Positions 19,748 to 62,206 of a stretch of DNA of 64,000 nucleotides are shown here, piece after piece. Source of the stretch: Marchantia polymorpha subsp. ruderalis (taxonomy: Eukaryota > Streptophyta > Marchantiopsida > Marchantiales > Marchantiaceae). The stretch lies in assembly GCA_037833965.1 (NCBI GenBank), contig AP031352.1:21184501-21248500 (forward strand). The letters are read 5' to 3'. A program made the position numbers and the translations under genes. The notes under the pieces are model-generated. The model had not been told where the DNA came from, did no database searches, and saw only the letters and a program-made list of their open reading frames with translations. How positions within the stretch are numbered: position 1 is the stretch's first letter; each line of letters opens with the position of its first letter.

Positions 19748-19783
19748 CGTAGTGCAGTGTAGTGTTAGGTAGGACTTAGAAGG

Positions 19784-19793
19784 TATAAAATAG
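19784..19793 (+). promoter_or_regulatory. TATA box of solo LTR L4
   Basis: TATAAAATAG, 36 bp after the U3 ORF stop, followed by the inverted repeat CCAGGC-GTTTT-GCCTGG. Confidence 0.7.
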
Positions 19794-23585: not shown

Positions 23586-24930
23586 AAGATACGGGTGTGT
23601 CAGGATTTCAGAAAGTTGAATGCAGCAACACGTAAGGATCACCATACTCTGCCGTTCACGGATGCCATTTTAGACCATGTTGCGGGACATGAGTGCTATA
23701 GCTTCCTAGACGGGCTCTCAGGCTACAATCAGGTGTCTATCCGGGAACAGGACAAGGTTAAAACGACATTCACAACCGATTGGGGAACTTATGCGTATCA
23801 CAAGATGCCCTTCGGTCTGTGCAATGCACCTGCCACCTTTCAGCGGATGATGACCAATATTTTTCAGGAGCAGCTGAGGAAGTTCCTAGAAATATTTATA
23901 GACGACTTCTGTGTCTTTGGAAAGCGGTCAGAACACCTGAGTCACCTGAAGCAGACCTTTGATAAATGCAGGGAGAGCAGTTTATCGCTGCACCCCGAGA
24001 AGTGTTTTTTCTTTATGACTAGTGGAATCTTGTTGGGCCATCGTGTTTCGTCGGACGGCATTGCAGTGGACATTGAGAAGGTCAAGGTCATACTCGAGCT
24101 CGAGCCACCAACGAATCTGAGGGAGCTGCGAGCATTTCTGGGTCATGTGGGCTACTACCGAAGATTCATACACATGTATGCGATCTTGGCGGCTGACCTG
24201 ACCAGGTTGTTAAAGAAGGACGAGACTTATGACTGGGGTGCGAAGCAGCAGTCAGCATTCGAGGCTCTTAAAGCGAAACTCACGACCGCTCCAGTATTAA
24301 GGAGCCCAGACTGGGATCGACCCTTCCATGTCTACGTCGACACATCGGCATTCGCCATCGGCGTCGTCTTGAGCCAGAAGGATGACAACAAAAAGGACTA
24401 CCCGATTTATTTTGCGAGCCGTCAGCTGTCTCTAGCAGAAAGGAAGTACACCACGACAGAGAGAGAGGCGTTGGGGATGGTGTACTCCTGCAAAAAGTTT
24501 CGACACTACTTAATCTGCTACGAGTTTGTGTTCCATGTGGATCACTACGCCTTGCAACACCTAGTCAAGAAAGCAGATCTGTCCAGTCGGATAGCCAGAT
24601 GGGTGCTGTTGCTGCAGGAGTTCACCTACACGGTCCAGACCAGGAAGGGGGTGCATCACGAAAATGCAGATTACTTATCCAGATTATGAACCCAGCCTAC
24701 CGAGGAGGAACTGGTGGACAACTTTCCGGACGAACAGCTGTTTCAGTTGTCCGCGGGGCAGGAGTCCCGCTATGCAGAGCTGTACCGATACCTGCTCACA
24801 CTTCACTGTCCCGAGAGCATGGACTTAGAACAAAGGACTGTCTTTATACATAAGGCAGGCCCGTATCAACTCCAACAAGGAGTTTTGTTCAAGAAGATGG
24901 CAGACGAACGTTTGTGCAGATGCCTGGAGG
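23586..24930 (+). pseudogene. pol: pol of element D: RT and RNase H part
   Basis: Starts abruptly at KIRVCQDFRKLN inside the RT. RT motifs seen: FLDGLSGYNQ with the first catalytic Asp, MPFGLCNAPATF, and FIDDFCVFG with the Asp pair. The RNase H domain follows with the Asp of FHVYVDTSAFA, the Glu of TEREALGM and the Asp of FHVDHYAL. TGA at 24687-24689 replaces a Trp codon that is intact in element B (SRLWTQPT). The frame then continues to 24930, where element B is inserted in the codons for CLEE; the rest is at 58058. It would copy element RNA into DNA, but it is dead by truncation, stop and insertion. Confidence 0.92.
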
Positions 24931-25891
24931 TGTAATAACCCACTAAAGGCTAAAACTGCAATATAGTGGTAGAAAGGTCGAACCCACAGGGACAGAGGAA
25001 CACACAGGGTACAAAGTGTCACGTTTAACATACTATTGATGAGTTTGAATTCTCAGGCGACTGTCACTCCCAGAAATACTGCAAGTGTCCACTCGGAGCG
25101 CACTCGGAGGTCGCACAGTGCAGCGTACACACACACACACACACCTGAAACTACAGAGACACAACCTAGAGATCCGTTAGGACCTCTACTTCAAGATTTC
25201 AGGGGGAAAGTCTCTCAAGAGTACACTCGGCAAAGCTGCGGGCAGTGACTTCCAACTCCGGCTTTTACAACACTTCCACTAGCTTGCTGCTAGTGTAGGA
25301 AACCCGGTTTGGACTGCCTACTTCGGATCGAAGTCACTCCTACGCGGTGAACAACACTCTCAACTCACAAAACGCGCAGAGAACACAGGTCCGCACTGAA
25401 GGACTCACTGTGAAACATTCCAGGAACACAACAACAGTCTATTGAAGAGTTTGAATTCTCAGGCACTTGTCATTCCCAGAAATACTACAGGGGTTACCCT
25501 CAAGGCACCTGCTGCAGCGTAACCTGAATTTACAACCAAGGCTTACACGAAGTAGCAAAACTTCACTTTGGCATTCAGGGGAAAAATCCCAAAGGAGTAC
25601 AATCAGAAAGAAACACTCGAAGGTGTAGGGGCGAAACTGTTCAAGTATCTAACTAGTCACTGGCTCTGAGCATCGGCAGTCACCCGCAGGTGCAGATCCA
25701 AACTACTCAAGTCTCTAACCAATGTACTAGCTCTGAACATTCGGCCGAAGGCCTTCAGCTACAAAATGCGGAACGCTAAGTTGTAACTCCTCGTGCGTGG
25801 TGACAGAACTCAAGGACACAAACACGCAAAGGAAATGGGTTCCTGATCTGCACTTCTGATGGGAAAGAACCCCAGGCAAAACGCCTGGAAC

Positions 25892-25901
25892 TATTTTATA
25901 C
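25892..25901 (-). promoter_or_regulatory. TATA box of B 3' LTR
   Basis: On the minus strand TATAAAATAG, 35 bp after the U3 ORF stop, followed by CCAGGC-GTTTT-GCCTGG. Confidence 0.68.
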
Positions 25902-25936
25902 CTTCTAAGTCCTACCTAGCACTACACTGCACTACG

Positions 25937-28900
25937 CTACACGCCTGCACGGAACCACGCTACACTACACTCCGCGGAACCTGTACTACGTCTCCTGCGC
26001 GGCCGACTGCCGCGCACTAACTCCCTACCCTGCCAATCTTCCGCTCGACTGCGCAGTCCCAAACGCTGCAACGCCGCGGACACCTCCACTTCGAGGGCGG
26101 ACATGGTATCCTGTGCCTTCGACAGAAAGGCATCGAGCTTCTTTGCTACCTTCCGCCGACTCCTACTGTCGCCTGACAACAACCCGGCTGCGCGCAATTC
26201 AAACTCACGCAGTGTGAGTTTCTCCTGCGCCTTCACTTCCCAGTGGGCGTAGCCCTTGAGACAGTGGGCGACACGCCTCGCCGTCTCCACCTTCGTGCGA
26301 TCCGCCTCCTTCCTGCGATCCTCTTCAATTATCACTAATTGCGATTCGGCTTCAGCACGTTGCGCTCTCAATTCGCCACACTCTGACTGTAACCTGCGGA
26401 TTAACTCTTCATCCGCCTGCCGTGCGAGCTGACATTGTTCCAACAACCGCGTCTGTCGCACGAGCTCCTCTGACAAAATCCGATTCTGGGCCTGCTCAGA
26501 AATGAGTGCTTCCTTGACCTTCACCTGCTCCTTGGTGAGCTCGTCCAGTTTCTCCTCCTTCATCTTCTCGGAGTGCTTGTAGAATTTCTGATTAAGTTTG
26601 TACTGACCCCACAAGCATGCATGCTTCTCCTTCAATTCCCTCAACTCCTGGTCCACTCTAGCTAATAGCTTGCTGGTGTGGACTTTAGTGCGAGTCCGCC
26701 TGCGCACTAACTCGATATAAGATCCCGGCTGGAGTGGGTCGGCGTATTTATCGACCTTGCGATCCAAGTACCTCAGCAACGGAATCACCTGCTCAGAGAG
26801 CGCCGCCGCCGGCGCTCCAACAATTTCCTCCTCCTCCTCCTCGGTGTCTTCTGCTCCTGACATTTCTTCCGTGGAGCCTCCGTCGTCATCATCCGAGTGG
26901 AGAATTTCAGTCGCCATTGATTGCGTCGGCGACTGCCCCGAGTGGGGCTGCACGTCATCGACGTGTCCTGCCTGCGAAGGCACGGCTGCAGCCTCGCTGC
27001 TCGTCGCCAAAATGTCTAAGGCGGAAGGCGAATGTACCCGTGCGGCATCCCCGTCTCTCGCTTGTTGGTTGTCTACCGCGTCCTCTCTGCTGCCGTCGCC
27101 CGCCGCCGAAGGCGGTCGAGCGGAGGGTGGCTGCGCGGGGTTTGATTGCGCATCGCGCATCGAAATCTCATCCCGCGGACAGTCACTCCGCTCCTCCGTC
27201 TGTTGCTGCTCCCTTGATCGGTCCGTGGGGGCTGTGCCCGGCCCGTGCGCAGGCGCAATTGCCGGCGCCTTGTCCGCCGCAGGCGTAGCGCCGCGGACAT
27301 CCATCGCCGAAGGCGACATGGCCGGGGGCCGCTCGCCCGATGTCCCTTGGCCTATAGGCCCTACCGCCGAAGGCGCATCTATCGGCGGACTTCCCGCCGA
27401 TGGTGCGGCCTCCGCACGCTCCCTGCTCGTATCTCCTCGGCTCGAAGGCCCTGGCGCCGAAGGCGCAAATTGCGGCGCGTGGTGCGCCGGAGGGTCTGGC
27501 CCCGAGGGCCGGTGTCTCGTAGGCGGTTCTTCCGCCGGCTCCTTCCCCTTCCTACGTTGGAACGGGGGTGATTCTTGCCTGTGCACAGGCGGCACGTGTG
27601 GAGGTGTCCTGTGCACAGGCGACCTGTGCACAGGTGAGCGCCTGTGCACAGGCGGACTGCTCCTTCCCAGGCGTAAGCGTAGATCCACGTCCACTTGTGA
27701 TCGCCTGTCCGCGGAGGCTCGTCCGTCCGCGGAGGCTGGTCTGTGCGCAAACGGAACATCTGTCCGCATCGCACGTGGTAACTCCGGAGGCCCTTGGCCC
27801 GTAGGCGGCCTCTCTCCCGTCGAGGTTGCAGCGTGGCCCGTCGCTCCTGCGGTCGTCCGCGCTTCCTCATGCTCCTCTGGCGACGCACTTCCTTTCTCCG
27901 TCGCAATCGTCGCCGTGTCCGCACTGTCGGCTGGTAATACCAGTCTGCGTGCCTTCTGCTTCGGCCGGCTGTAGGACTCGCACAGCGGCCGCGGTCGAAT
28001 GGGAGCAGAGGGTTCTTGATGCTGCTCCTCTTCAGACTCTTCCCTCCATCGCCGCTTCCGCGGCACTCGTGCTGCAGGAGTGTGTCTCCCTTCGTCCCTC
28101 CGCCTTGATGGGGTAGAAGTCGGTGACTCCTCTGCATCAGTGTCGACCTCATTCTCCCGCACATACTTCCCGGGATGGTCGATGGACAATGGCGGAAAAT
28201 GTTCAAGCTCCGCCGCTGTCAAACAATTCCGCTGTCGATAAAAATTGATGAGGAAAGGAGAAAGATGGTTTAGAGTTCCCCCCTTCTCCTCAAACGCGTG
28301 CTGTCGCATCACCCTGTGCAGGATGCTCGCCCAGTGAATTGGAGTTCCCTCGATGACGCACTCCACAAAAGAGACCTGCCACAATGTGATGTAGCAGGCG
28401 CGGTGCGGCTGCAGTAGTTGCATCAGCGCCGCGGACAAAGTCCGGCGAAATCGATCCTTGTAATCACGGGTCCTGTACCCATTCTTGGTAGACCTCCCGG
28501 TCTTGAACAGCTCCACAAATTGCGCCTCTTCCTGCTTAGTCACCTTGATGCTCTCACTGTCGAAAAGGAGATGCCCTGGCATGCCAGCACATCTTCCCAA
28601 CGCCTGTGCCCAATCTTGGACTGTCCACCGATCAACATGCGGACGCAATCCGCGCGAGGGTGGTCCCTGTGGCTCTAGCCACTCGCGCACCATATTCGCA
28701 CAGATGTAGTTCCATCCCCATAGCAAGAAATCGAGCTTTCTTGCTATTAAGCGCTCCTCGAAAGCGCGCAGCCCGTTCTGTGGTAGGCGAAGTGGCACCA
28801 TCCGCAATCTGCTCGGTCTCGTCATTGCGTTCCTGGGGTTCGCTCGCCCGCTCATTTTACTTCCGCACCGCCCGAGCGCCTTTCTCTCTCGGCAAACTCT

Positions 28901-29077
28901 AATCGCCCTCAGTTCCAAATCACGCGCATTCACTTCTCCCTCAATCAACAAGAAATCTCCTGTGCGACGACGTCGAGAGTGTTCAGCAGCCAGCAGATGG
29001 ATGCGCGCAGCGCGCACAAGAGATTGGAATCGCGAATTCAAGAATTGGACGTTCTCCGCCGCCCGGTCGAAGGTCAT
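25937..29077 (-). CDS. LTR-encoded U3 ORF protein, intact, 1046 aa
   Basis: The longest intact copy of the gene carried inside the LTR. ATG at 29077 with A at -3 (GACCATGA). Layout: basic N-terminus; globular domain ~100-305 with WGWNYIC (120-126), LLFDSESIKV (170-179) and KGGTLNHLSPFLINFY (265-280); Arg-rich patch RKRRWRE (340-346); Pro/Ala/Ser linker ~310-725 with PVHR and PSA repeats; acidic patch 727-752; LLRYLDRKVDKY helix (767-778); long coiled coil ~800-945; helical C-terminal block with RSRRKVAKKLDAFL (971-984); basic tail RPRRRR (1025-1030). No signal peptide, membrane segment, zinc finger or catalytic motif is apparent. The order of short motifs in the globular part resembles the 'putative plant transposon protein' domain (PF20167) found with Athila-type elements; this is a by-eye judgement. 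The coiled coil suggests self-association. The function is unknown. Confidence 0.8.
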   Translation of the reverse strand: MTFDRAAENVQFLNSRFQSLVRAARIHLLAAEHSRRRRTGDFLLIEGEVNARDLELRAIRVCRERKALGRCGSKMSGRANPRNAMTRPSRLRMVPLRLPQNGLRAFEERLIARKLDFLLWGWNYICANMVREWLEPQGPPSRGLRPHVDRWTVQDWAQALGRCAGMPGHLLFDSESIKVTKQEEAQFVELFKTGRSTKNGYRTRDYKDRFRRTLSAALMQLLQPHRACYITLWQVSFVECVIEGTPIHWASILHRVMRQHAFEEKGGTLNHLSPFLINFYRQRNCLTAAELEHFPPLSIDHPGKYVRENEVDTDAEESPTSTPSRRRDEGRHTPAARVPRKRRWREESEEEQHQEPSAPIRPRPLCESYSRPKQKARRLVLPADSADTATIATEKGSASPEEHEEARTTAGATGHAATSTGERPPTGQGPPELPRAMRTDVPFAHRPASADGRASADRRSQVDVDLRLRLGRSSPPVHRRSPVHRSPVHRTPPHVPPVHRQESPPFQRRKGKEPAEEPPTRHRPSGPDPPAHHAPQFAPSAPGPSSRGDTSRERAEAAPSAGSPPIDAPSAVGPIGQGTSGERPPAMSPSAMDVRGATPAADKAPAIAPAHGPGTAPTDRSREQQQTEERSDCPRDEISMRDAQSNPAQPPSARPPSAAGDGSREDAVDNQQARDGDAARVHSPSALDILATSSEAAAVPSQAGHVDDVQPHSGQSPTQSMATEILHSDDDDGGSTEEMSGAEDTEEEEEEIVGAPAAALSEQVIPLLRYLDRKVDKYADPLQPGSYIELVRRRTRTKVHTSKLLARVDQELRELKEKHACLWGQYKLNQKFYKHSEKMKEEKLDELTKEQVKVKEALISEQAQNRILSEELVRQTRLLEQCQLARQADEELIRRLQSECGELRAQRAEAESQLVIIEEDRRKEADRTKVETARRVAHCLKGYAHWEVKAQEKLTLREFELRAAGLLSGDSRSRRKVAKKLDAFLSKAQDTMSALEVEVSAALQRLGLRSRAEDWQGRELVRGSRPRRRRSTGSAECSVAWFRAGV

Positions 29078-30323
29078 GGTCGGCTCTTGCTCGTGAAGAA
29101 CGTCTCACTTGATGGCCGCGCCGGCTGTACGCTGGAACGGTCTTCGCTCTCACGCGCGGCTTCACGCTCCGCCGTCGTCGATTAAACTCTCACGCTCGAA
29201 TTGGCGGATTTGAACTCCGCGAGCGTATTACCCCGCGGACATGGGGGCGTAGCGCCGAAGGCGAGTTTTCCGCCTTGCGCGGTACACTTGTTCGTACCGC
29301 CCCTCGGCCAATCCCCCTCTGCCTTGACGCGTGTGTCCGCATGTCGGACAAAAGTTCAACTCCTGCCTGTGCGCAGGCAGACTCCTCGGCGGATTCTCCG
29401 CCGGCGCGGAACTTGAACATCCTCCTGTGCACAGGCGTTCGCCTGTGCGCAGGCGAATTTCGTGCGCGGCGCTGCGCTGGCGCGGAAGGCGTTGACCGTG
29501 GTCAGCCGTCTCCGTCCAGTCTGTCCGTTCCTTGTCTCTTCGTCGGCGCTTCCGCCGCCGCAACTCCGTCCGTCAAGAGCGCATCCACCCGTCCCGTCCG
29601 CATGGTCCGTACCGATTTGATTACTCTGGCGGCTCTTCCGCCGTACGCGGCGCCGCGCTGGCGCGGAAGGCGCCGTACACTTTCTACCTCACAAGGCGCA
29701 TTTCTAGGGCCCAAGGCGGATTTTCCGCCGACGCCGAAGCGCCTGTGCACAGGCGAACGCCTGTGCGTAGGCGGGCTTCGCGCCTCCCCTAACCCTACTT
29801 CGCCTGTGCACAGGCGAACGCCTTCGTCCGCGCATAGGACAAAACTTGATTCCCCCTTCCGCGTAGGCGGAATTCGCGCCGGTGGCGAACTCTTTCCGCC
29901 GTAGGCGACCGCCTCCGTTTCTCCCAATAGTGATAACTCCCTAAGTCCTCATCCGTTCCAAGCGTTCTTGGACTCGTTGGAATCAGTGCGTCGAGCTCTT
30001 TCCAACGGGACCCTAACTTGGTCAAGGCGCCCGAGGGTTGACCTAATTAGGGAGGATTTCCCTACCGCCGCGGACGCAACCTCCGAAGGCGGGTTTTGCG
30101 CCTTGCGTCGTAGGGGTCCTAACTGCAGAGCTCGCAGGGAGGGTGGTGCCTGTCCTTACTGCTGCACCCCAAATCCCAGATTCTACAAGATCCCTCGAGA
30201 ATCCCCGCGATCTTCCGGATTCACTCTGTTTTGATGTACCGAAGGCTATTTACAATGCTGCCAGGGTACAGTTTTCCAAAAATGTTTTAATTTCCTCAAA
30301 ATTGCCAAAAGTGGGGTACCACA

Positions 30324-30360: not shown

Positions 30361-32704
30361 TCACATGTGGTATTTCTTCAACTGCCACCCGTTCACTCGG
30401 GTGCCTAACAAATCGCCGGCCAGGTCCGCAAGTTGGATGGATCCATTCGGGAAGACTTCGACAACCCTGTAAGGTCCCATCCATCTTAGGTGCAGTTTGC
30501 CTGGGAATCTGGCATGCCTGCTGTCGTAGAGCAATGCCAAATCACCCGCCTGCAGGAGTACCGGTTTGATCCTTTTATCGTATCTCTCCTTTCGGCGGAG
30601 CTGGATTTTCCTGGTGCGATCTTCAGCGTCTCGTCTCCTCTCATCCAGCAGCGTGACCTCCTGTAACCTGTAGAGCTGACTCTCCTCTGCGCCCATCCTC
30701 TGCAAATCCAACGTTCGTTGGGTGGGTACTTCAAATTCGATCGGGAGGATCGGGTGTTGCCCATACACCAGAAAGTATGGTGTCTGTTTGGTCGTGATCT
30801 TCTCAGCTGTCCGGTACGCCCATAGAGCGGCTGCTAGCTTCGTATCCCAGTCGTGAGCGTGATTCACCGTGACCTTGAGTAGTATTTTACACAGTAGACC
30901 ATTGGACTTCTCCGTCAGTCCATTTGCCTTGGGATTGTATGGAGTAGTCTTCCGGTGCTTGATGTGGAAATACCGTGTCAGATCTTCGATGATCTGATTC
31001 AGAAAATGCGTGCCCCGGTCGCTGACTAGCTCTAAGGGACATCCGTAGCGTGTGATGATCGACTCAAACAAGAAGGCTGCCACTGTGGCAGCATCATCCC
31101 TTCTGGTGGCCCTGGCCTCTACCATTTTGGTGGCGTAGTCCGTTGCTACCAGAATGTAGCGCCTTTGTGTACTTCTAGTCATTGGTTGTATCGGCCCTAC
31201 AAAGTCAATGCCCCACTTCTCGAAAGGTGCTAGAGGCATGATGGGAGTCAGGGGCCAGCGTGTTGTATGCGTCGGTCTCCCCGTCCTCTGGCAACTGTCG
31301 CACTTGCGGATGTAATCGAGAACATCCTTAAACATGGTCGGCCACCAATACCCCGCATTTAGAATCTTTGTGACCGTGTTCCTGGTGGCATAGTGTCCAC
31401 CCGCCTCCTCTGTATGCATCGCACTCACTATTCTTGGTACCTCTGATTCCTCCAGGCATCTGCATAAGCGCTCATCTGCCATCTTCTTGAACAAAACCCC
31501 CTGCTGGAGTTGGTACGTGCCTGCCTTATGAATAAAGACAGTTCGCTGTTCCAAATCCATGCCTACGGGACACTGGAGGGTTAGCAGATATCGATACAGG
31601 TCGGCATAGCGGGACTCATGTCCTGCAGACAACTGAAATAACTCTTCATCTGGAAAATCGTCCACCAATTCCTCCTCTGTCGGCTGGGTCCATAATCGGG
31701 ACAAGTAATCCGCATTTTCGTGGTGCACCCCTTTCCTGGTCTGGACTGTGTAGGTGAACTCTTGTAGTAACAACACCCACCTGGCGATCCGACCGGATAG
31801 GTCGGCTTTCTTGACTAGGTGTTGCAATGCGTAGTGGTCCACATGGAACACAAACTCGTAGCAGATTAGGTAGTGACGGAACTTTTTACAGGAGTACACC
31901 ATCCCCAACGCTTCTCTCTCCGTCGTGGTGTACTTCCGCTCTGCTAGAGACAGCTGTCGGCTCGCGAAGTAGATCGGGTAGTCCTTTTTGTTGTCATCCT
32001 TTTGACTCAGTACTACACCGATGGCGAATGCAGATGTGTCAACGTAAACATGGAATGGTCGATTCCAGTCTGGACTCCTTAGTACGGGAGCAGTCGTGAG
32101 TTTCGCTTTAAGGGCCTCAAATGCTGACTGCTGGTTCGCACCCCAAGCATAAGGCTCGTCCTTCTTCAACAACTTGGTCAGGTCCGCCGCCAGTATTGCA
32201 TACAGATGTATGAATCTTCGGTAGTAGCCCACATGACCCAGGAATGCTCGCAGCTCTCTTAGATTCGTGGGTGGCTCGAGCTCGAGTATAACCTTGACCT
32301 TCTCGATGTCCACCGCAATGCCGTCTGCCGAGACCCGATGACCCAACAAGATCCCACTAGTCATAAAGAAAAAGCACTTCTCGGGATGCAGCGATAAACT
32401 ACTATCTCTACATTTATCGAAGGTCTGCTTCAAGTGACTTAGGTGTTCAGACCGCTTCCCAAAGACACAGAAGTCATCTATGAATATTTCCAGGAACTTC
32501 CTCAGTTGTTCCTGGAAGATATTGGTCATCATCCGTTGAAAGGTGGCAGGCGCGTTGCACAGACCGAAGGGCATCTTGTGGTATGCGTAAGTTCCCCAGT
32601 CGGTGGTGAACGTAGTTTTATCCTTGTCCTGTTCCCGGATAGACACCTGATTGTAACCTGAGAACCCATCCAGGAAGCTATAACATTCATGTCCTGCGAC
32701 ATGG
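30361..32704 (-). pseudogene. pol: pol of element B: RT (partial), RNase H, integrase
   Basis: One open frame from 32704 (RT at HVAGHECYSFLDG) to a stop at 30361-30363. RT catalytic FIDDF, RNase H Asp/Glu/Asp (YVDTSAF, TEREALGM, HVDHYAL). Integrase with the zinc-binding H...H and CDSCQRTGRP, then GIDFVGP, SDRGTHF and GLTEKSNG, which gives Asp, Asp, 35 residues, Glu. C-terminal GPY module (RWMGPYRVVEVFPNGS) and the closing NGWQLKKYH; no chromodomain. The frame has no stop, but its N-terminal part lies 11 kb away at 44026-44375 and roughly 50 or more RT residues between the two pieces are missing from the window, so element B cannot make a complete Pol. Confidence 0.92.
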
Positions 32705-34054: not shown

Positions 34055-34605
34055 TCACCGAGCATGGCTGCTCGTAAAAACCCCGGTGTTGACGCAACTG
34101 TGGTACCCCACTTTTGGCAATTTTGAGGAAATTAAAACATTTTTGGAAAACTGTACCCCGGCAGCATTGTAAATAGCCTTCGGTACATCAAAACAGAGTG
34201 AATCCGGAAGATCGCGGGGATTCTCGAGGGATCTTGTAGAATCTGGGATTTGGGGTGCAGTAGTAAGGTCAGGCACCACCCTCCCTGCGAGCTCCGCAGT
34301 TAGGATCTCTACGGCGCAAGGCGCAAAACCCGCCTTCGGAGGTTGCGTCCGCGGCTGTAGGGAAACCCCCGTAATTAGGTCAACCCTCGGGCGCCTTGAC
34401 CAAGTTAGGGTCCGGTTGGAAAGAGCTCGACGCGCTGATTCTAACGAGCCCAAGAGCGCTTAGAACGGACGAGGACTTAGGAAGTTATCGCTACTGGAAG
34501 AAACGGAGGCGGTCGCCTACGGCGGAAGGAGTTCGCCACCGGCGCGAATTCCGCCTACGCGGAAGGGGGATTCAAGTTTTGTCCTATGCGCGGACGAAGG
34601 CGTTC

Positions 34606-35062
34606 GCCTGTGCACAGGCGAAGTAGGGTTAGGGAAGGCGCGAAGTCCGCCTACGCACAGGCGAACGCCTGTGCACAGGCACTTCGGCGTCGGCGGAGAA
34701 TCCGCCTTGGGCCCTAGAAATGCGCCTTGTGAGGTAGAAAGTGTACGGCGCCTTCCGCGCCAGCGCAGCGCAGCGTACGTCGGAAGAGCCGCCAGAGTAA
34801 ACCAATAGGTACGGACCGTGCGGACGGCACGGGTGGATGCGCTCTTGGACGGACGGAGTTGCGGCGGCGGAAGCGCCGACGGAGAGACAAGGAACGGACA
34901 GACTGGACGGAGACGGCTGACCACGGTCAACGCCTTCCGCGCCAGCGCAGCGCCGCGGACGGAATTCGCCTGCGCACAGGCGAACGCCTGTGCACAGGAG
35001 AATGTTCAAGTTCCGCACCGGCGGAGAATCCGCCGAGGCCCCTGCCTGCGCACAGGCAGGAG
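34606..35062. repeat. Palindrome cluster in the LTR leader
   Basis: Exact GCCTGTGCACAGGC palindromes at 34606-34619 and 34667-34680, plus related GCCTACGCACAGGC and GCCTGCGCACAGGC units, many flanked by CG. Similar clusters lie in all leaders: 8330-8850, 10740-11300, 15860-16320, 29370-29830, 43080-43540, 47755-48210, 57095-57555, 59600-60120 and 63600-63990. The older subfamily uses more GCCTACGCGTAGGC. Confidence 0.85.
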
Positions 35063-35344
35063 TTGAATTTTTGTCCGACATGCGGACGCACGCGTCAAGG
35101 CAGAAGGAGATTGGCCGAAGGGCGGTACGAACAAGTGTACCGCGCAAGGCGGAAAACTCGCCTTCGGCGCTACGCCCCCATGTCTGCAGGGTGACACGCT
35201 CGCGGAGTTCAAATCCGCCAATTCGAGCGTGAGAGTTTAATCGACGACGGCGGAGCGTGAAGCCGCGCGTGAGAGCGAAGACCGTTCCAGCGTACAGCCG
35301 GCGCGGCCATCAAGTGAGACGTTCTTCACGACCAAGAGCCGACC

Positions 35345-38300
35345 ATGACCTTCGACCGGGCGGCGGAGAGCGTCCCATTCTTGAATTCGCGATTCCAATC
35401 TCTTGTGCGCGCCGCGCGCATCCATATGCTGGCTGCGGACCATTCTCGTCGTCGCCACACAGGAGATTTCTTGTTGATTGAGGGAGAAGTGAGTGCGCGT
35501 GATTTGGAATTGAGAGCGATTAGAGTTTGCCGAGAGAGAAAGAAACGCGGACAGTGTGGAAGTAGAATGAGCGGGCGAGCGAACCCCAGGAACGCAATGA
35601 CGAGACCGAGCAGATTGCGGATGGTGCCACTTCGCCTGCCGCAGAACGGGCTGCGCGCTTTCGAAGAGCGCTTAATAGCAAGAAAGCTCGATTTCTTGCT
35701 ATGGGGATGGAATTACATCTGCGCGAATATGGTGCGCGAGTGGCTAGAGCCACAGGGACCACCCTCGCGCGGATTGCGTCCGCATGTTGACCGGTGGACA
35801 GTCCAAGATTGGGCGCAGGCGTTGGGAAGATGTGCTGGCATGCCAGGGCATCTCCTTTTCGACAGCGAGAGCATCAAGGTGACCAAGCAAGAAGAGGCGC
35901 AATTTGTGGAGCTGTTCAAGACCGGGAGGTCTACCAAGAATGGGTACAGGACCCGTGATTACAAAGATCGATTTCGCCGGACTTTGTCCGCGGCGCTGAT
36001 GCAATTACTGCAGCCGCACCGCGCCTGCTACATCACATTGTGGCAGGTCTCTTTTGTGGAGTGCGTCATCGAGGGAACTCCCATTCACTGGGCGAGCATC
36101 TTGCACAGGGTGATGCGACAGCACGCGTTTGAGGAGAAGGGGGGAACTCTAAACCATCTTTCTCCTTTCCTCATCAATTTTTATCGACAGCGGAATTGTT
36201 TGACAGCGGCGGAGCTTCAACATTTTCCGCCATTGTTCATCGACCATCCCGGGAAGTATGTGCGGGAGAACGAGGTCGACACTGATGCGGAGGAGTCCCC
36301 GACTTCTACCCCATCGAGACGGAGAGACGAAGGGAGACACACCCCTGCAGCGCGAGTGCCGCGGAAGCGGCGATGGAGGGAAGAGTCCGAAGAGGAGCAG
36401 CATCAAGAACCCTCTGCTCCCATTCGACCGCGGCCGCTGTGCGAGCCATACAGCCGGCCGAAGCAGAAGGCACGCAGACTGGTGTTGCCAGCTGACAGTG
36501 CAGACACGGCGACGATTGCGACGGAGATAGGAAGTGCGTCGCCAGAGAGGCGAGAGGAAGCGCGGACGACCGCAGGAGCGACGGGCCACGCTGCAACCTC
36601 GTCGGGAGAGAGGCCGCCTACGGGCCAAGGGCCTCCGGAGTTACCACGTGCGATGCGGACAGATGTTCCGTTTGCGCACAGGCGAACCTCCGCGGACGGA
36701 CGAGCCTCCGCGGACCGGCGAACACAAGTGGACGTGGATCTACGCTTACGCGTGGGAAGGAGCAGTCCGCTTGTGCACAGGCGCTCGCCTGTGCACAGGC
36801 GACCTGTGCACAGGACACCTCCACACGTGCCGCCTGTGCACAGGCAAGAATCACCCCCGTTCCAACGTAGGAAGGGGAAGGAGCCGGCGGAAGAACCGCC
36901 TACGAGACATCGGCCCTCGGGGCCAGACCCTCCGGCGCACCACGCGCCGCAATTCGCGCCTTCGGCGCCAGGGCCTTCGAGCCGAGGGGATACGAGCAGA
37001 GAGCGTGCGGAGGCCGCACCGTCGGCGGAAAGTCCGCCGATAGATGCGCCTTCGGCGGTAGGGCCTATAGGCCAAGGAACATCGGGCGTGCGGCCCCCGG
37101 CCATGTCGCCTTCGGCGATAGATGTCCGCGGCGCTACGCCTGCGGCGGACAAGGCGCCGGCACATGCGCCTGCGCACGGGCCGGGCACAGCCCCCACGGA
37201 CCGATCAAGGGAGCAGCAGACGGAGGAGCGGAGTGACTGTCAGCGGGATGAAATCTCGATGCGCGATGCGCAATCCAACCCCGCGCAGCCACCCTCCGCT
37301 CAATCACCTCCGGCGACGGACGACAGAGGCAGAGAGGATGCGGTAGACCATCAACAAGCGAGAGACGGGGATGCCGCACGGATACATTCGCCTTCCGCCT
37401 TAGACATTTTGGCGACGAGCAGCGAGGCTGCAGCCGTGCCTTCGCAGGCAGCACACGTCGACGACGTGCAGCCCCACTCGGGGCAGTCGCCGACGCAATC
37501 AATGGCGACTGAAATTCTCCACTCGGATGATGACGACGGAGGCTCCACGGAAGAAATGTCAGGAGCAGAAGACACCGAGGAGGAGGAGGAGGAAATTGTT
37601 GGAGCACCGGCGGCGGCGCTCTCTGAGCAGGTGATTCCGTTGCTGCGGTACTTGGATCGCAAGGTCGATAAATACGCCGACCCACTCCAGCCGGGATCTT
37701 ACATCGAGTTAGTGCGCAGGAGGACTCGCACTAAAGTCCACACCAGCAAGCTATTAGCTAGAGTGGACCAGGAGTTGAGGGACTTGAAGGAGAAGCATGA
37801 GTGCTTGTGGGGACAGTACAAGCTTAATCAGAAATTCTACAAGCACTCCGAGAAGATGAAGGATGAGAAACTGGGCGAGCTCACCAAGGAGCAGGTGAAG
37901 GTCAAGGAAGCACTCAACTCTGAGCAGGCCCAGAATCGGATTTTGTCAGAGGAGCTCGTGCGACAGACGCGGTTGTTGGAACAATGTCAGGCGGATGAAG
38001 AATTAATCCGCAGGTTACAGTCAGAGTGTGGCGAATTGAGGGCGCAACGTGCTGAAGCCGAATCGCAATTAGTGACCATTGAAGAGGATCGCAGGAAGGA
38101 GGCGGATCGCACGAAGGTGGAGACGGCGAGGCGAGTCGCCCACTGTCTCAAGGGCTACGCCCACTGGGAAGTGAAGGCGCAGGAGAAACTCACACTGCGT
38201 GAGTTTGAATTGCGCGCAGCCGGGTTGTTGTCAGGCGACAGTAGGAGTCGGCGGAAGGTAGCGAAGAAGCTCGAGGCCTTTCTGTCGAAGGCACAGGATA

Positions 38301-38470
38301 CCATGTCCGCCCTCGAGGGGGAGGTGTCCGCGGCGTTGCAGCGGTTGGGACTGCGTAGTCGAGCGGAAGAGTGGCAGGGTAGGGAGTTAGTGCGCGGCAG
38401 TCGGCCGCGCAGGAGACGTAATACAGGTTCCGCGGAGTGTAGTGTAGCGGGGTTCCGTGCAGGCGTGTAG
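35345..38470 (+). CDS. LTR-encoded U3 ORF protein, intact, 1041 aa
   Basis: Intact copy in the LTR at 34099. Same order of parts as the 1046-residue copy at 25937-29077: globular N-terminal domain, Pro/Ala/Ser linker, acidic run TEEEEEEIVGAP, LLRYLDRKVDKY, coiled coil, basic tail. It lacks four residues (LARQ) in the coiled coil after EQCQ and has other differences in the linker, all in whole codons. The ATG context is GACCATGA. The stop (TAG, 38468-38470) is 36 bp before the TATA box, so an RNA started there would not contain this copy; it could be read from an upstream U3 start or from read-in. Function unknown. Confidence 0.8.
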   Translation: MTFDRAAESVPFLNSRFQSLVRAARIHMLAADHSRRRHTGDFLLIEGEVSARDLELRAIRVCRERKKRGQCGSRMSGRANPRNAMTRPSRLRMVPLRLPQNGLRAFEERLIARKLDFLLWGWNYICANMVREWLEPQGPPSRGLRPHVDRWTVQDWAQALGRCAGMPGHLLFDSESIKVTKQEEAQFVELFKTGRSTKNGYRTRDYKDRFRRTLSAALMQLLQPHRACYITLWQVSFVECVIEGTPIHWASILHRVMRQHAFEEKGGTLNHLSPFLINFYRQRNCLTAAELQHFPPLFIDHPGKYVRENEVDTDAEESPTSTPSRRRDEGRHTPAARVPRKRRWREESEEEQHQEPSAPIRPRPLCEPYSRPKQKARRLVLPADSADTATIATEIGSASPERREEARTTAGATGHAATSSGERPPTGQGPPELPRAMRTDVPFAHRRTSADGRASADRRTQVDVDLRLRVGRSSPLVHRRSPVHRRPVHRTPPHVPPVHRQESPPFQRRKGKEPAEEPPTRHRPSGPDPPAHHAPQFAPSAPGPSSRGDTSRERAEAAPSAESPPIDAPSAVGPIGQGTSGVRPPAMSPSAIDVRGATPAADKAPAHAPAHGPGTAPTDRSREQQTEERSDCQRDEISMRDAQSNPAQPPSAQSPPATDDRGREDAVDHQQARDGDAARIHSPSALDILATSSEAAAVPSQAAHVDDVQPHSGQSPTQSMATEILHSDDDDGGSTEEMSGAEDTEEEEEEIVGAPAAALSEQVIPLLRYLDRKVDKYADPLQPGSYIELVRRRTRTKVHTSKLLARVDQELRDLKEKHECLWGQYKLNQKFYKHSEKMKDEKLGELTKEQVKVKEALNSEQAQNRILSEELVRQTRLLEQCQADEELIRRLQSECGELRAQRAEAESQLVTIEEDRRKEADRTKVETARRVAHCLKGYAHWEVKAQEKLTLREFELRAAGLLSGDSRSRRKVAKKLEAFLSKAQDTMSALEGEVSAALQRLGLRSRAEEWQGRELVRGSRPRRRRNTGSAECSVAGFRAGV

Positions 38471-38506
38471 CGTAGTGCAGTGTAGTGCTAGGTAGGACTT
38501 AGAAGG

Positions 38507-38516
38507 TATAAAATAG
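38507..38516 (+). promoter_or_regulatory. TATA box of the LTR at 34099
   Basis: TATAAAATAG followed by CCAGGC-GTTTT-GCCTGG (38519-38535). With a usual TATA-to-start distance of ~30 bp, transcription would begin near 38537, leaving ~940 bp of R-U5. Confidence 0.7.
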
Positions 38517-38917
38517 TTCCAGGCGTTTTGCCTGGGGTTCTTTTCCATCAGAAGTGCAGATCAGGAACCCATTTCCTTTGCGTGTTTGTGTCCTTGAGTT
38601 CTGTCACCACGCACGAGGAGTTACAACTTAGCGTTCCGCATTTTGTAGCTGAAGGCCTGCGGCCGAATGTTCAGAGCTAGTACATTGGTTAGAGACTTGA
38701 GTAGTTTGGATCTGCACCTGCGGGTGACTGCCGATGCTCAGAGCCAGTGACTAGTTAGATACTTGAACAGTTTCGCCCCTACACCTTCGAGTGTTTCTTT
38801 CTGATTGTACTCCTTGGGATTTTTCCCCTGAATGCCAAAGTGAAGTTTTGCTACTTCGTGTAAGCCTTGGTTGTAAATTCAGGTTACGCTGCAGCAGGTG
38901 CCTTGAGGGTAACCCCT

Positions 38918-39380
38918 GTAGTATTTCTGGGAATGACAAGTGCCTGAGAATTCAAACTCTTCAATAGACTGTTGTTGTGTTACTGGAATGTTTCACAGTG
39001 AGTCCTTCAGTGCGGACCTGTGTTCTCTGCGCGTTTTGTGAGTTGAGAGTGTTGTTCACCGCGTAGGAGTGACTTCGATCCGAAGTAGGCAGTCCAAACC
39101 GGGTTTCCTACACTAGCAGCAAGCTAGTGGAAGCGTTGTAAAAGCCGGAGTTGGAAGTCACTGCCCGCAGCTTTGCCGAGTGTGCTCGTGAGAGACTTTC
39201 CCCCTGAAATCTTGAAGTAGAGGTCCTAACGGATCTCTGGGTTGTGTTTCTGTAGTTTCAGGTGTGTGTGTGTGTGTGTTACGCTGCACTGTGCGACCTC
39301 CGAGTGCGCTCCGAGTGGACACTTGCAGTATTTCTGGGAGTGACAGTCGCCTGAGAATTCAAACTCCTCAATAGTCTGTT
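38918..39380 (+). repeat. Duplicated ~56-bp motif inside R-U5
   Basis: 38918-38973 and 39325-39380 are imperfect direct copies, both with GTATTTCTGGGA, GCCTGAGAATTCAAACTC and TCAATAG. Each is preceded by TTACGCTGCA. The pair is present in every complete R-U5 in the window, including the diverged L1 (1711-1765 and 2171-2227), so the duplication is old and kept. Confidence 0.85.
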
Positions 39381-39499
39381 AAATCGTGACACTTTGTACC
39401 CTGTGTGTTCCTCTGTCCCTGTGGGTTCGACCTTTCTACCACTATATTGCAGTTTTAGCCTTTAGTGGGTTATTACATAAGAAGCCGACAACTTCTTTT

Positions 39500-39517
39500 T
39501 GGCGCCGCTGCCGGGGA
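39500..39517 (+). other. Primer binding site, plus-strand element
   Basis: TGGCGCCGCTGCCGGGGA, 22 bp after the LTR end. Matches the tRNA-Asp-type PBS of OTA elements except at one base. The spacer TAAGAAGCCGACAACTTCTT contains a short GAAG/CTTC inverted repeat. Confidence 0.82.
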
Positions 39518-44375: not shown

Positions 44376-44378
44376 CTA
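44370..44378 (-). promoter_or_regulatory. UAG CAA UUA stop-codon readthrough motif
   Basis: On the minus strand GAA TAG CAA TTA ACT. The gag-protease frame ends in TAG (44378-44376) and the same frame continues open into pol. CAA UUA directly after UAG is the tobamovirus readthrough context (UAG-CAR-YYA), which is known to promote partial suppression in plants. This is inferred to set the ratio of Gag-Pro to Gag-Pro-Pol. Only one copy of this junction is in the window, so a chance nonsense mutation is not excluded. Confidence 0.7.
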
Positions 44379-47207
44379 TTCGTCTTCCGGCTGAATAGCT
44401 TCCGGCTCTTCTTCTTCTCCCACCGAACAGCAGGCAACGAATCCCACGAAATAATCGGATTCGGTACCACTGGAATCCGATCGCGCGGTCGACTCACTGT
44501 CCCCGCCCGATGTGTAACCTGCACTCGTCGATGGGGTCTCTCCTTCGTGTCTGACCTTATTCCAGGGCACCGTAATGGTTTTGGTCGGTTCCAAAGGATG
44601 GGGAAACTTAAGGCGATGCCTTCGCCAATCACATCTGACTTGTGCGCCATATAGCCATGGTCGCCCGAGCAGAACGTCATAGCCCTGCTTCATCATCGGT
44701 TGAAGGATGATATACGTCAACCGAAAGTCCGCACCCCCGATGATTGTCTTGACATTGCGCAGCATACCTGCAGGCATTCTCCGCGTCTGATCCGCTAATC
44801 TCAACACACGCTTCGAGGGTTCGTATTGACTGAACCCCAAGGCCCTCGCGGTATCCTCCGTCATTATGTTGACTCCTGATCCAGAGTCGATTGGCACCCT
44901 GCGTACACAACACCCTGCTATTTCCACATCGATCTCTGGTGGCCCTTGGTCTTCGCTCTCCACTTGATATACTTGAGAGGATGTGGATGCGCGCGGCTTC
45001 CGCGGACGCCGTAGCGAAAGCATCAACATTCTCCGATACGTCTTATTGTCCTCCAAGAGCTGCTTGAACGTGATGTTCACTTTTCGACTCCCGAGATCTT
45101 CGACCAAGTCATAGTGGGCGCGTTGGGTCGCCGGGGTCGGCGACGCTCTGCGAGGTTCCACGGTGGCTGCCAACTTCGCCCCAAGGGAGGATGTCAAGTC
45201 TGGCCGCGGTGGGTCCTTTTGAGTGCGGATCGCTTCCTTCAACAGGTTGGTTACCTCGTTGCGGATATCCGGAGCATAGTCCCGTTTCAGCAAGCGTACT
45301 GGCTCGTCCTCGATTGCTGTCTGGGACCGCACTGCTGGTGCTTCTCGCGTAGCCGAAGACTTCCGTGCAGGTCGCAAGTCGGACTTGCTGGATGTCTTCT
45401 CCTTCCCTTTTCCCGTCCGGTCGTTGGTTCTCCGTTCGTGCTTGCGAGTGTCACGCTCTTGCTCCTTCGATTTCTTGGAACTACGAGTTTCGACCCGTGC
45501 GCACATAACCTCTTCCGCCGGCCATTCTTCGTCTTCGTCATCCCCGTCTGAACCTACTTCGACCTGGTTAACTTGGACGTCCTCCTTGGCAGGAGGGTTC
45601 ACAAATCGTACCGCTGGCCGAGGGACTGGTGGCTGATCACACTCTGGCGCAGTATGCCCGGTCTTCTTGCAATTACTGCATGTCGGAACATAATCGTTTC
45701 GCCTTTTTGGATGGGGACACTGCGGTGAGAAGTGTCCAACTTCCCCGCAATTATAACAAGCTCGCGGTGGCGGTGGGTCAAACGTCCCTGGAGGTGCTCT
45801 CCGCCTCACGGGTACTGTAGTGGCCCGATCCACCGGATGATATCGTGGGACTTGCATTGCTGAAACTGCAGTAGGGGTAGGAACCGACTGGACGGCGTAG
45901 GCTGTCTCTTCGCTAGCCTCTCCATAGTACTGGGGGTGCTCTCCATAGTATGGTTGTGCCCACTCTACTGCGTTGACTGGATATGACGGACGGGTGGTAA
46001 GGCACTCGGTGTTTGCATGTCCCACCGCCCCGCACGTAGTACACCATAAGTTCGCTCGCACTCTCCCGGGTGATTTTCGGCGGTCATGCCCGCCTACCAC
46101 TTGAACCTTGAGATCGGCGAAGTCCTTCACAAGGGTCTCCATCTTCGAGGCTATGTCTCCCGGCGCTCTGTCCGTAGTCACTCGTCGGGTGCCCTTTTTC
46201 TTCGCTGCCCCATGCTTCTTCCTCTTCTTCTCCTCCTCCGACGATGAGGTTTCCTCTTCTTCGGATGAGGAACGGTTCTCGTCCGAAGACGATTCCTCCG
46301 ATGACGGAGTTGTACCTCTACGTCGTCTTCGCCCTCCCTTCGGTTTTCGCTCCTTCGACTCCCGTCTCTCTCTCCCTCTTCGGTTGAGAGTGGAAGTTTC
46401 GAAGGCTTCTGCCGATGCAATCACATCCTCAATAGTGTCGCACTTGCTGCGTCGGCAAAAAGTCTCCATCTCCCGAGTTAAACCGGTCACGTACCAATCC
46501 ACAGCTTGTTGTACCGAGAAAGGGGACCCTGGTCCTGTTTTCGGTATTCTGTCAAGGAGGTCCAGAAATCTCTCAGTGTAGTCACGCAGACTCTCCTTCT
46601 TCTCTCGCTGCAAATTACGTAACTTTGTCAAAACCCGGCTGTCGTAGCCGAGCTCGCGGAAGCGGCGAAGGAACTTCTCCTTCAGCTGGGCCCATGTTGT
46701 CAACCCAGTCGGATTGATGCTCTCGTGATTGTACCAACTCCTCGCTTTCTTCCGCAGAAGGCTTGGAAAGATCCTTAGTCGGTCGTCGTCTGCGATCTCG
46801 CGATTGGCAATAGACACCGATTCGAACAACTTGATGTATGAATCTGCATCGTCGTCATCCCCACTCCCTTTATACTTTGGGTAGGAATGTTTAGTAATCG
46901 GCTGAGGTAGCCGCACATTGGCTTGTCCGTCCGCCATCGGTGTGTCTGTCGACGGTTCTCGGGCGGTCGTTTCTAATTCACGAGGCGGGTCCGTGCAAGG
47001 AATATCTAGTAGAACTGTAAGCACCAAGTTTGGTTCCGAGTTGCCGGGGGTAGGTTCCCCAAGGATGTCGGCCGAACTAGGCTTAGGTACTCTTTTTGGT
47101 GTTTTCTTGTTTTGACGCCGTGTCTCTTCCACGGCCTTCTCTGAATCTCGTCGGAACCTGCGGACAGCTCTAGCACTTAGGTTGCTCCCGCTAGCCCCAG
47201 TCGACAT
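44376..47207 (-). CDS. gag-pro: Gag-protease polyprotein, intact, 943 aa
   Basis: ATG at 47207. Basic N-terminus; retrotransposon Gag core ~120-245 (FPSLLRKKARSWYNHES); Ser/Glu/Lys-rich low-complexity stretch 277-345; three CCHC knuckles of the form C-x2-C-x4-H-x4-C at 389-402 (CTTCGAVGHANTEC), 484-497 (CYNCGEVGHFSPQC) and 510-523 (CSNCKKTGHTAPEC); an acidic and Lys-rich spacer; then an aspartic protease ~756-870 with the active site IDSGSGVN (Asp 774) and DVLLGRPWL (844-852). Gag packages the RNA in the cytoplasmic particle and the protease cuts the precursor. The product ends at UAG, after which the same frame enters pol. It is the only undamaged gag in the window. Confidence 0.93.
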   Translation of the reverse strand: MSTGASGSNLSARAVRRFRRDSEKAVEETRRQNKKTPKRVPKPSSADILGEPTPGNSEPNLVLTVLLDIPCTDPPRELETTAREPSTDTPMADGQANVRLPQPITKHSYPKYKGSGDDDDADSYIKLFESVSIANREIADDDRLRIFPSLLRKKARSWYNHESINPTGLTTWAQLKEKFLRRFRELGYDSRVLTKLRNLQREKKESLRDYTERFLDLLDRIPKTGPGSPFSVQQAVDWYVTGLTREMETFCRRSKCDTIEDVIASAEAFETSTLNRRGRERRESKERKPKGGRRRRRGTTPSSEESSSDENRSSSEEEETSSSEEEKKRKKHGAAKKKGTRRVTTDRAPGDIASKMETLVKDFADLKVQVVGGHDRRKSPGRVRANLWCTTCGAVGHANTECLTTRPSYPVNAVEWAQPYYGEHPQYYGEASEETAYAVQSVPTPTAVSAMQVPRYHPVDRATTVPVRRRAPPGTFDPPPPRACYNCGEVGHFSPQCPHPKRRNDYVPTCSNCKKTGHTAPECDQPPVPRPAVRFVNPPAKEDVQVNQVEVGSDGDDEDEEWPAEEVMCARVETRSSKKSKEQERDTRKHERRTNDRTGKGKEKTSSKSDLRPARKSSATREAPAVRSQTAIEDEPVRLLKRDYAPDIRNEVTNLLKEAIRTQKDPPRPDLTSSLGAKLAATVEPRRASPTPATQRAHYDLVEDLGSRKVNITFKQLLEDNKTYRRMLMLSLRRPRKPRASTSSQVYQVESEDQGPPEIDVEIAGCCVRRVPIDSGSGVNIMTEDTARALGFSQYEPSKRVLRLADQTRRMPAGMLRNVKTIIGGADFRLTYIILQPMMKQGYDVLLGRPWLYGAQVRCDWRRHRLKFPHPLEPTKTITVPWNKVRHEGETPSTSAGYTSGGDSESTARSDSSGTESDYFVGFVACCSVGEEEEPEAIQPEDE

Positions 47208-48495
47208 TCACCGAGCATGGCTGCTCGTAAAAACCCCGGTGTTGACGCAACTGTGGTACCCCACTTTTGGCAATTTTGAGGAAATTAAAACATTTTTGGA
47301 AAACTGTACCCCGGCAGCATTGTAAATAGCCTTCGGTACATCAAAACAGAGTGAATCCGGAAGATCGCGGGGATTCTCGAGGGATCTTGTAGAATCTGGG
47401 ATTTGGGGTGCAGTAGTAAGGTCAGGCACCACCCTCCCTGCGAGCTCCGCAGTTAGGATCTCTACGGCGCAAGGCGCAAAACCCGCCTTCGGAGGTTGCG
47501 TCCGCGGCTGTAGGGAAACCCTCGTAATTAGGTAACCCTCGGGCGCCTTGACCAAGTTAGGATCCCGTTGGAAAGAGCTCAACGCGCTGATTCCAACGAG
47601 CCCAAGAACGCTTGGAACGGACGAGGACTTAGGGAGTTATCGCTACTGGAAGAAACGGAGGCGGTCGCCTGCGGCGGAAGGAGTTCGCCACCGGCGCGAA
47701 TTCCGCCTGCGCGGAAGGGGGATTCAAGTTTTGTCCTATGCGCGGACGAAGGCGTTCGCCTGTGCACAGGCGAAGTAGGGTTAGGGAAGGCGCGAAGTCC
47801 GCCTACGCACAGGCGTTCGCCTGTGCACAGGCACTTCGGCGTCGGCGGGAGATCCGCCTTGGGCCCTAGAAATGCGCCTTGTGAGGTAGAAAGTGTACGG
47901 CGCCTTCCGCGCCAGCGCAGCGCAGCGTACGTCGGAAGACCGCCAGAGTAATCCAATCGGTACGGACCGTGCGGACGGCACGGGTGGATGCGCTCTTGGA
48001 CGGACGGAGTTGCGGCGGCGGAAGCGCCGACGGAGAGACAAGGAACGGACAGACTGGACGGAGACGGCTGACCACGGTCAACGCCTTCCGCGCCAGCGCA
48101 GCGCCGCGGACGGAATTCGCCTGCGCACAGGAGAACGCCTGTGCACAGGAGAATGTTCAAGTTCCGCGCCGGCGGAGAATCCGCCGAGGCCCCTGCCTGC
48201 GCACAGGCAGGAGTTGAATTTTTGTCCGACATGCGGACGCACGCGTCAAGGCAGAAGGAGATTGGCCGAGGGGCGGTACGAACAAGTGTACCGCGCAAGG
48301 CGGAAAACTCGCCTTCGGCGCTACGCCCCCATGTCCGGAGGGTGACACGCTCGCGGAGTTCAAATCCGCCAATTCGAGCGTGAGAGTTTAATCGACGACG
48401 GCGGAGCGTGAAGCCGCGCGTGAGAGCGAAGACCGTTCCAGCGTACCGCCGGCGCGGCCATCAAGTGAGACGTTCTTCACGACCAAGAGACGACC

Positions 48496-51612: not shown

Positions 51613-51648
51613 CGTAGTGCAGCGTAGTGTTAGGTAGGACTTAGAAGG

Positions 51649-51658
51649 TATAAAATAG
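51649..51658 (+). promoter_or_regulatory. TATA box of solo LTR L5
   Basis: TATAAAATAG, 37 bp after the U3 ORF stop. The following inverted repeat has one mismatch here (CCAGGC-GTTTT-GCCTCG). Confidence 0.68.
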
Positions 51659-53625: not shown

Positions 53626-53635
53626 CTATTTTATA
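53626..53635 (-). promoter_or_regulatory. TATA box of B 5' LTR
   Basis: On the minus strand TATAAAATAG with CCAGGC-GTTTT-GCCTGG after it. As the 5' LTR copy this would start the genomic RNA of element B. Confidence 0.7.
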
Positions 53636-53689
53636 CCTTCTAAGTCCTACCTAGCACTACACTGCACTACGCTACACGCCTGCACGGAA

Positions 53690-62170: not shown

Positions 62171-62206
62171 CATAGTGCAGTGTAGTGCTAGTTAGGATTT
62201 AGAAGG

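What the first reader, a model, noticed from the sequence alone, without database searches (positions are those of the whole stretch)
34099..39477. A 5.4-kb LTR that carries its own ~1040-codon gene
In this family the LTR is not a short regulatory repeat. Its borders are set by polypurine tracts (30324-30336, 59175-59187) on one side and PBS sites (9938, 39500, 52628) on the other, and a 1038-1047-codon sense ORF lies entirely inside U3 in every complete copy. Protein-coding LTRs are rare; MMTV sag is the textbook case. I know of no described plant gypsy family with an intact >1000-codon gene wholly in U3, though I cannot search.
Basis: partly seen in the sequence, partly recalled or inferred. 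Interest (0 to 1): 0.93.

Follow-up and report, generated by a model that had tools for sequence, protein, structure and literature searches.

The report
Giant LTR carrying its own gene
A family of jumping elements in a liverwort (Marchantia) has unusually long end repeats, and each repeat contains a large gene of unknown function that natural selection appears to have kept working, so the element carries that gene twice.

Summary
Window 34099-39477 is a 5,379-bp LTR (TG...CA). A 1,041-codon ORF (35345-38470) lies inside it in the gag-pol sense; a conserved TATA box follows its stop by 36 bp. A PBS matching tRNA-Asp follows the LTR, and the PPT lies directly behind integrase. The window holds one inserted element with two such LTRs (99.54% identical, 5-bp TSD) and two TSD-flanked solo LTRs. 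Genome-wide, 36-mers for LTR start, ORF and TATA occur 3,043, 2,577 and 3,540 times. Between element lineages dN/dS is 0.22-0.27; a substitution shuffle gave P<1/5000 in 4 of 6 pairs tested. No informative Pfam match; the C-terminus is a long coiled coil. Best reading: a Ty3/gypsy family whose PPT precedes a third gene, which therefore lies in U3. My paper searches turned up no such plant case. RNA start and protein function are inferred, not shown.

The parts
34099..39477 (+). LTR of the finding, 5,379 bp, TG...CA, followed by a PBS in its own orientation
35345..38470 (+). ORF inside the LTR, 1,041 codons, intact; no Pfam match at E<=1, C-terminal coiled coil predicted
38507..38516 (+). conserved TATA box (TATAAAATAG), 36 bp after the ORF stop; inferred genomic-RNA promoter, so U3 would end about 38537
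39500..39517 (+). primer binding site matching tRNA-Asp
24931..30323 (-). 3' LTR of the element inserted at 24931-58057, with intact 1,046-codon ORF
25937..29077 (-). U3 ORF of that 3' LTR, 1,046 codons
30324..30336 (-). polypurine tract between integrase and the 3' LTR
30361..32646 (-). pol part: RT (C-terminal part), RNase H, integrase
44376..47207 (-). gag with zinc knuckles and a weakly matched aspartic protease, 943 codons
52628..52645 (-). primer binding site of the inserted element
52668..58057 (-). 5' LTR of the same element, 99.54% identical to 24931-30323; its ORF is broken (786-aa piece 54230-56590)
24926..24930 (.). target site duplication GGAGG, left
58058..58062 (.). target site duplication GGAGG, right
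47252..52620 (+). solo LTR with intact 1,038-codon ORF, inserted between PBS and gag of the minus-strand element; TSD GCAAC/GCAAT, one mismatch (47247-47251, 52621-52625)
48496..51612 (+). U3 ORF of that solo LTR
15360..20756 (+). solo LTR, TSD GAATT both sides, ORF broken (761-aa piece)
59188..63181 (+). LTR of a related subfamily, ORF remnant and TATA box in the same order; PPT 59175-59187 before it
4007..9255 (-). LTR of a further related subfamily with ORF remnant and TATA box

Best explanation
A Ty3/gypsy LTR-retrotransposon family of Marchantia (M. polymorpha or a very close relative) in which the polypurine tract lies directly behind integrase and a third gene lies downstream of it. Because plus-strand DNA synthesis starts at the PPT, everything between PPT and the RNA start becomes U3. 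The roughly 1,040-codon gene is therefore copied into both LTRs and survives in solo LTRs. Shown from sequence: LTR, PBS, PPT, TSD, open frame in 7 of 12 full-length LTRs, purifying selection, conserved TATA behind the ORF, same order in more distant relatives. Inferred: RNA starts just behind the TATA, so genomic RNA reads R-U5-gag-pol-U3(ORF)-R. Also inferred: the protein is made from its own promoter in the first 1.25 kb of the LTR or by splicing, and works in trans as a self-associating accessory factor (coiled coil, proline-rich middle), perhaps regulating expression or handling nucleic acid.
For: Borders, PBS, PPT and TSDs. Two LTRs of one element 99.54% identical. Nine PBS-PPT pairs read by eye from the listed hits lie 5,775-5,789 bp apart (the lists are capped at 100 places each, so this is no full count). 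Genome counts 3,043, 2,577 and 3,540 with control 0. dN/dS 0.22-0.27 in the 10 pairs with dS above 0.10; synonymous excess P<1/5000 in 4 of 6 pairs tested, P=0.0026 in a fifth, and P=0.067 between the two LTRs of one element, as expected after insertion. TATA exactly 36 bp behind the stop in all 7 intact LTRs, present in all 12 full-length LTRs and in subfamilies B and D, and behind the ORF in 6 of 6 fetched loci of more distant relatives. 38 of the 44 best-scoring protein matches in the genome have no stop (a top-ranked sample). Coiled coil with pLDDT of 90 or more over 107 residues.
Against: No RNA or protein evidence. The LTR at 10298-15147 gave no match to the TATA block. One young element (C4:3.5 Mb, LTRs 99.88% identical, TSD GTAGC) lacks most of the ORF and the TATA in both LTRs, so the gene was not needed in cis for that insertion to be completed, or the loss arose in that very cycle. 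5 of 12 full-length LTRs have a broken frame. The N-terminal model is unusable (pLDDT 38.8). The element at C3:8.3 Mb, the only fetched one with full-length LTRs at both ends, has no matching TSD. The permutation test does not reject neutrality for its two LTRs (P=0.067).
Confidence: 0.78

Rival explanations
1. The main RNA starts near the LTR's first 100 bp, so the ORF lies in R or the 5' leader and is the first gene of the genomic RNA, not a U3 gene.
For: The first 110 bp of the LTR are similar across subfamilies and hold a weak TATA-like TTGTAAATAG or GTGTAAATAG. The C4:3.5 Mb element lacks the downstream TATA as well as most of the ORF.
Against: A far better TATA box follows the ORF in all 12 full-length LTRs, in subfamilies B and D and in 6 of 6 fetched distant loci. 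The C4 junction was found only in that element's two LTRs, so it need not have its own promoter.
Confidence: 0.12
2. The long frame is a by-product (GC-rich sequence or constraint on the DNA or RNA) and no protein is made.
For: No informative Pfam match, no PDB match and no homologue named outside Marchantia. Some 36-mers within the ORF's N-terminal part are invariant in all 12 full-length LTRs.
Against: dN/dS 0.22-0.27 between lineages and excess of synonymous changes against a base- and CpG-matched shuffle. In alignment codons 101-250 of the seven intact ORFs 20 codons vary synonymously and none changes the amino acid.
Confidence: 0.06
3. The 5.4-kb unit is a separate mobile element that happens to sit next to gag-pol.
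For: Solo copies with their own TSD exist.
Against: PBS and PPT abut its ends 1,253 and 820 times. Two copies in the same orientation bound one element with a shared TSD. Solo LTRs are the usual product of LTR recombination (established knowledge).
Confidence: 0.02

Closest known systems
MMTV (betaretrovirus) sag
   Same: A sense gene within the LTR's U3, downstream of the PPT, hence present in both LTRs (MMTV layout recalled, not looked up).
   Different: No sequence comparison was made. Here the gene is about 1,040 codons in a plant Ty3/gypsy element; superantigen function has no meaning here.
Plant Ty3/gypsy elements with extra ORFs (Ogre with PMD, Retand with Transposase_28/TRP28, Athila ORF1; Neumann 2019 PMC6317226, Vicient 2020 PMC7264820, Vicient 2025 PMC11963269)
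   Same: Large elements with long LTRs and an additional gene beside gag-pol. tRNA-Asp is among the primers of non-chromoviruses (PMC6317226, section 13 read).
   Different: [quoted passage not shown] Here the ORF is sense and lies behind the PPT, inside the LTR. None of those domains matched.
Retrosat2 of rice (PMC3485330, passages read)
   Same: Unusually long LTR (more than 3.2 kb) and an extra ORF (ORF0).
   Different: ORF0 lies upstream of gag-pol; no ORF in the LTR is reported in the passages seen.

Membership tests
LTR retrotransposon | two direct LTRs TG...CA, PBS, PPT, 5-bp TSD | tested here: met
Ty3/gypsy superfamily | RT-RNase H before integrase; Ty3-type gag | tested here: met
   RVT_1, RT_RNaseH, Integrase_H2C2, rve in this order; Retrotrans_gag and Ty3_capsid
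chromoviruses | chromodomain behind integrase | tested here: not met
   no chromodomain among Pfam matches of the window pol ORF (E<=1) or of L043 (E<=0.1)
Tat lineage (Ogre, Retand) | additional RNase H domain (aRH) | tested here: not met
   none among Pfam matches between RH and INT, behind INT, or in the two frame pieces before RT; a diverged aRH could be missed
Athila | RT phylogeny with Athila; Athila ORF1 domain | tested here: inconclusive
   no PF03078 in 30 members of A2; RT tree not made
plant extra-ORF proteins (PMD, Transposase_28) | Pfam domain match | tested here: not met
   0 of 30 members at E<=5 (the first member is the N-terminal 330 residues only)
LTR-encoded gene of MMTV sag type (layout only) | sense ORF wholly between PPT and RNA start | tested here: inconclusive
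   PPT side shown; RNA start inferred from TATA
LTR-encoded gene of MMTV sag type (layout only) | protein made from the LTR | not testable with these tools
   no RNA or protein data

The most novel reading that the evidence does not exclude
A whole group of liverwort gypsy elements has a needed trans-acting accessory gene behind the PPT. Each insertion then carries two copies, and each solo LTR stays a complete stand-alone gene unit. Thousands of LTRs would then form a reservoir of helper genes feeding the family in trans, under selection that acts on the population of copies.
Probability: 0.3. Interest if true: 0.82.

Novelty: new variant of a known kind. Interest (0 to 1): 0.62.

Why it matters
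LTRs are usually treated as short regulatory repeats. Here the LTR is a gene-bearing unit over 5 kb that outlives the element as a solo LTR. In a widely used model plant, pieces of related copies are annotated as hypothetical proteins (33 of the 39 homologues found), and at least one of these gene models is such a copy. It gives a testable case for how selection can maintain a gene outside the internal region, and for what an accessory protein does in a plant retrotransposon.

Tried and rejected
The structural model of the N-terminal 330 residues was unusable (pLDDT 38.8), and the C-terminal model is essentially one long coiled coil, so no fold search was run. Pfam over the 30 members of A2 gave 14 families, each in 1-3 members, the best Extensin_1 (1.9e-4, 3 members) and CENP-K (0.0018, 2 members), which I read as low-complexity and coiled-coil matches; PDB profile search 0. 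I suspected an amplified short-LTR variant lacking the ORF at C4:3.5 Mb and rejected it: its junction was found only twice in the genome at up to 3 mismatches, in its own two LTRs. A 5-bp CCGAG match at the junction fits a premature strand transfer in one reverse-transcription cycle; that is an inference. Of three elements fetched with a guessed 5' LTR position, one guess was right (C4) and two were wrong (C5:2.65 Mb, C6:3.6 Mb). Of ten elements fetched, only C3:8.3 Mb showed a full-length LTR at both ends and C4:3.5 Mb a complete short pair; in the other eight the LTR was diverged, truncated, rearranged, interrupted or not in the fetched stretch on at least one side. An earlier count gave 34 named and 5 unnamed homologues; a recount gives 33 and 6.

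Not done: RT phylogeny, counts of open frames over all copies, any RNA evidence.
Full report
What is there. The window lies at C3:21184501-21248500 of a 241-Mb, 9-contig genome. Self-comparison shows five full-length copies of one 5.37-5.40-kb unit: 15360-20756(+), 24931-30323(-), 34099-39477(+), 47252-52620(+), 52668-58057(-), plus diverged relatives. Each of the five begins TGTGGTACCCCA and ends TGGGTTATTACA. Where a PBS follows, it comes after a short spacer and reads TGGCGCCGCTGCCGGGGA, the complement of tRNA-Asp: 33 pattern hits in the genome, 29 exact, and the two loci tested are tRNA-Asp(GTC). In front of the start of the 3' LTR at 30323 comes the PPT GAGGAGGGGAGCA, directly behind integrase.

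One element in the window. The minus-strand LTRs 52668-58057 and 24931-30323 are 99.54% identical over 5,390 aligned positions and share the 5-bp duplication GGAGG on the + strand. They are the 5' and 3' LTR of one element inserted into the pol gene of a related element (23674-24930 and 58058-59187). The copies 15360-20756 (GAATT/GAATT) and 47252-52620 (GCAAC/GCAAT, one mismatch) are solo LTRs. The second of these sits between PBS and gag of the minus-strand element. The copy named in the finding, 34099-39477, has its own PBS behind it, but on its left the same gag flank as 47252 (32880-39477 matches 46033-52620 at 97.8%); a local duplication or rearrangement is likely and was not resolved.

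Genome-wide. Patterns with up to 3 mismatches and 0 control hits: LTR end plus PBS 1,253; integrase end plus PPT plus LTR start 820; LTR start 36-mer 3,043; ORF 36-mer 2,577; TATA 36-mer 3,540. Among the listed exact hits on contigs C1 and C2, 53 of 70 LTR starts have the exact ORF 36-mer at 1.4-1.8 kb, 35 of 70 the exact TATA 36-mer at 4.2-4.6 kb, 8 neither; partners with mismatches are not in these lists, so these are lower bounds. The counts suggest that most LTR copies carry ORF sequence. Whether they are open is another matter: 7 of 12 full-length LTRs examined are (3 of 5 in the window, 4 of 7 fetched), and the fetched ones were chosen through exact PBS or PPT matches, which favours young copies. 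Of the 44 best-scoring protein matches in the genome, 38 have no stop inside; that sample is top-ranked, hence biased too.

The gene. The ORF has 1,036-1,046 codons in the seven intact copies. The ten pairs with dS 0.10-0.17 give dN/dS 0.22-0.27; the eleven nearer pairs 0.30-0.48. Differences fall on codon positions as, for example, 25/28/74. Re-placing the observed substitutions at random on sites of the same base and CpG state gave fewer synonymous changes than observed in all 5,000 trials for 4 of the 6 pairs tested; for W34099-W47252 P=0.0026, and for the two LTRs of one element P=0.067. The last is what neutral decay after insertion predicts. Alignment codons 101-250 show 20 synonymously variable codons and none that changes the amino acid. 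The protein has no Pfam match at E<=1; among 30 relatives only scattered low-complexity or coiled-coil families appear; PDB gives nothing. One of them, P0001, is found in this genome at 98% and 94% identity in two pieces separated by 270 bp: the host is M. polymorpha or very close, and that gene model is a copy of an ORF of this group with a probably false intron. The C-terminal 306 residues are predicted as mostly one long coiled coil (mean pLDDT 77.6); the N-terminal model failed.

U3 or R? A TATA box (TATAAAATAG) stands 36 bp behind the ORF stop at 38507. The distance is 36 bp in all seven intact copies, and the block is present in all 12 full-length LTRs and in related LTRs 59188 and 4007, not found in 10298. 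In the six best loci fetched for the more distant relative P0001, a 22-base version with at most 2 mismatches follows the ORF match in 6 of 6, with an LTR-end motif about 1 kb further in 3 of 6 and no PBS found in the 1.5-kb flanks of any. This places the RNA start behind the ORF, makes R plus U5 about 0.94 kb, and puts the ORF wholly in U3. It is an inference from sequence.

An informative mutant. The element at C4:3.5 Mb has two 1,664-bp LTRs, 99.88% identical, TSD GTAGC, both missing about LTR positions 1512-5202, most of the ORF included. The junction lies in CCGAG, shared by both sides, and was found nowhere else in the genome. The simplest account is one reverse-transcription cycle in which the first strand transfer came too early, from U5 to U3. 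Either way that insertion was completed with an LTR lacking the gene, so the protein can act in trans or is not needed for that step.

How it probably works. In described plant elements accessory genes lie in the internal region (papers below). Here the PPT lies between pol and the gene, so reverse transcription copies the gene into both LTRs. Selection between element lineages keeps it; single copies then decay. What the protein does is open; a self-associating accessory or regulatory factor is my guess from the coiled coil.

Place among known things. gag, RT, RNase H and integrase order make it Ty3/gypsy. No chromodomain and no second RNase H were found. Neumann 2019 (PMC6317226; abstract, section 13 and passages; [quoted passage not shown] Vicient and Casacuberta 2020 (PMC7264820, passages), Vicient 2025 (PMC11963269, abstract and passages), PMC3485330 (passages), PMC9289625 (passages) and PMC9985172 (passages) report no ORF inside an LTR in what I saw. 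Nine paper searches listed no plant case; several returned far more papers than the 10-25 rows I saw, and most subscription papers are not held, so this is weak evidence of absence.

Noticed in passing
G000 C2:31345281-31390052, C3:20847415-20880732, C5:11013987-11050731: Evenly spaced pattern and protein hits with a period of about 11.1-11.2 kb, as if internal regions alternate with single shared LTRs in tandem arrays.
   Followed up: no
window 38519-38535: A short inverted repeat CCAGGC...GCCTGG just behind the TATA; in related LTRs 59188 and 4007 it reads CAAGGC...GCCTTG, so one pair changed on both sides.
   Followed up: no
window 39915-44025: A truncated minus-strand LTR lies between the plus-strand gag fragment behind 39477 and the gag of the minus element; the nest around 32880-44100 looks rearranged or duplicated.
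   Followed up: partly
G000 C1:2.18-3.26 Mb: Groups of PBS junctions recur in similar order and spacing three times, suggesting a segmental triplication on this 5.6-Mb contig (contig length).
   Followed up: no
G000 C2:26894882-26897311 (L045): The copy matching annotated protein AXG93_1200s1210 is an ORF of this group with the TATA block behind it, so that gene model is probably a retrotransposon fragment.
   Followed up: partly
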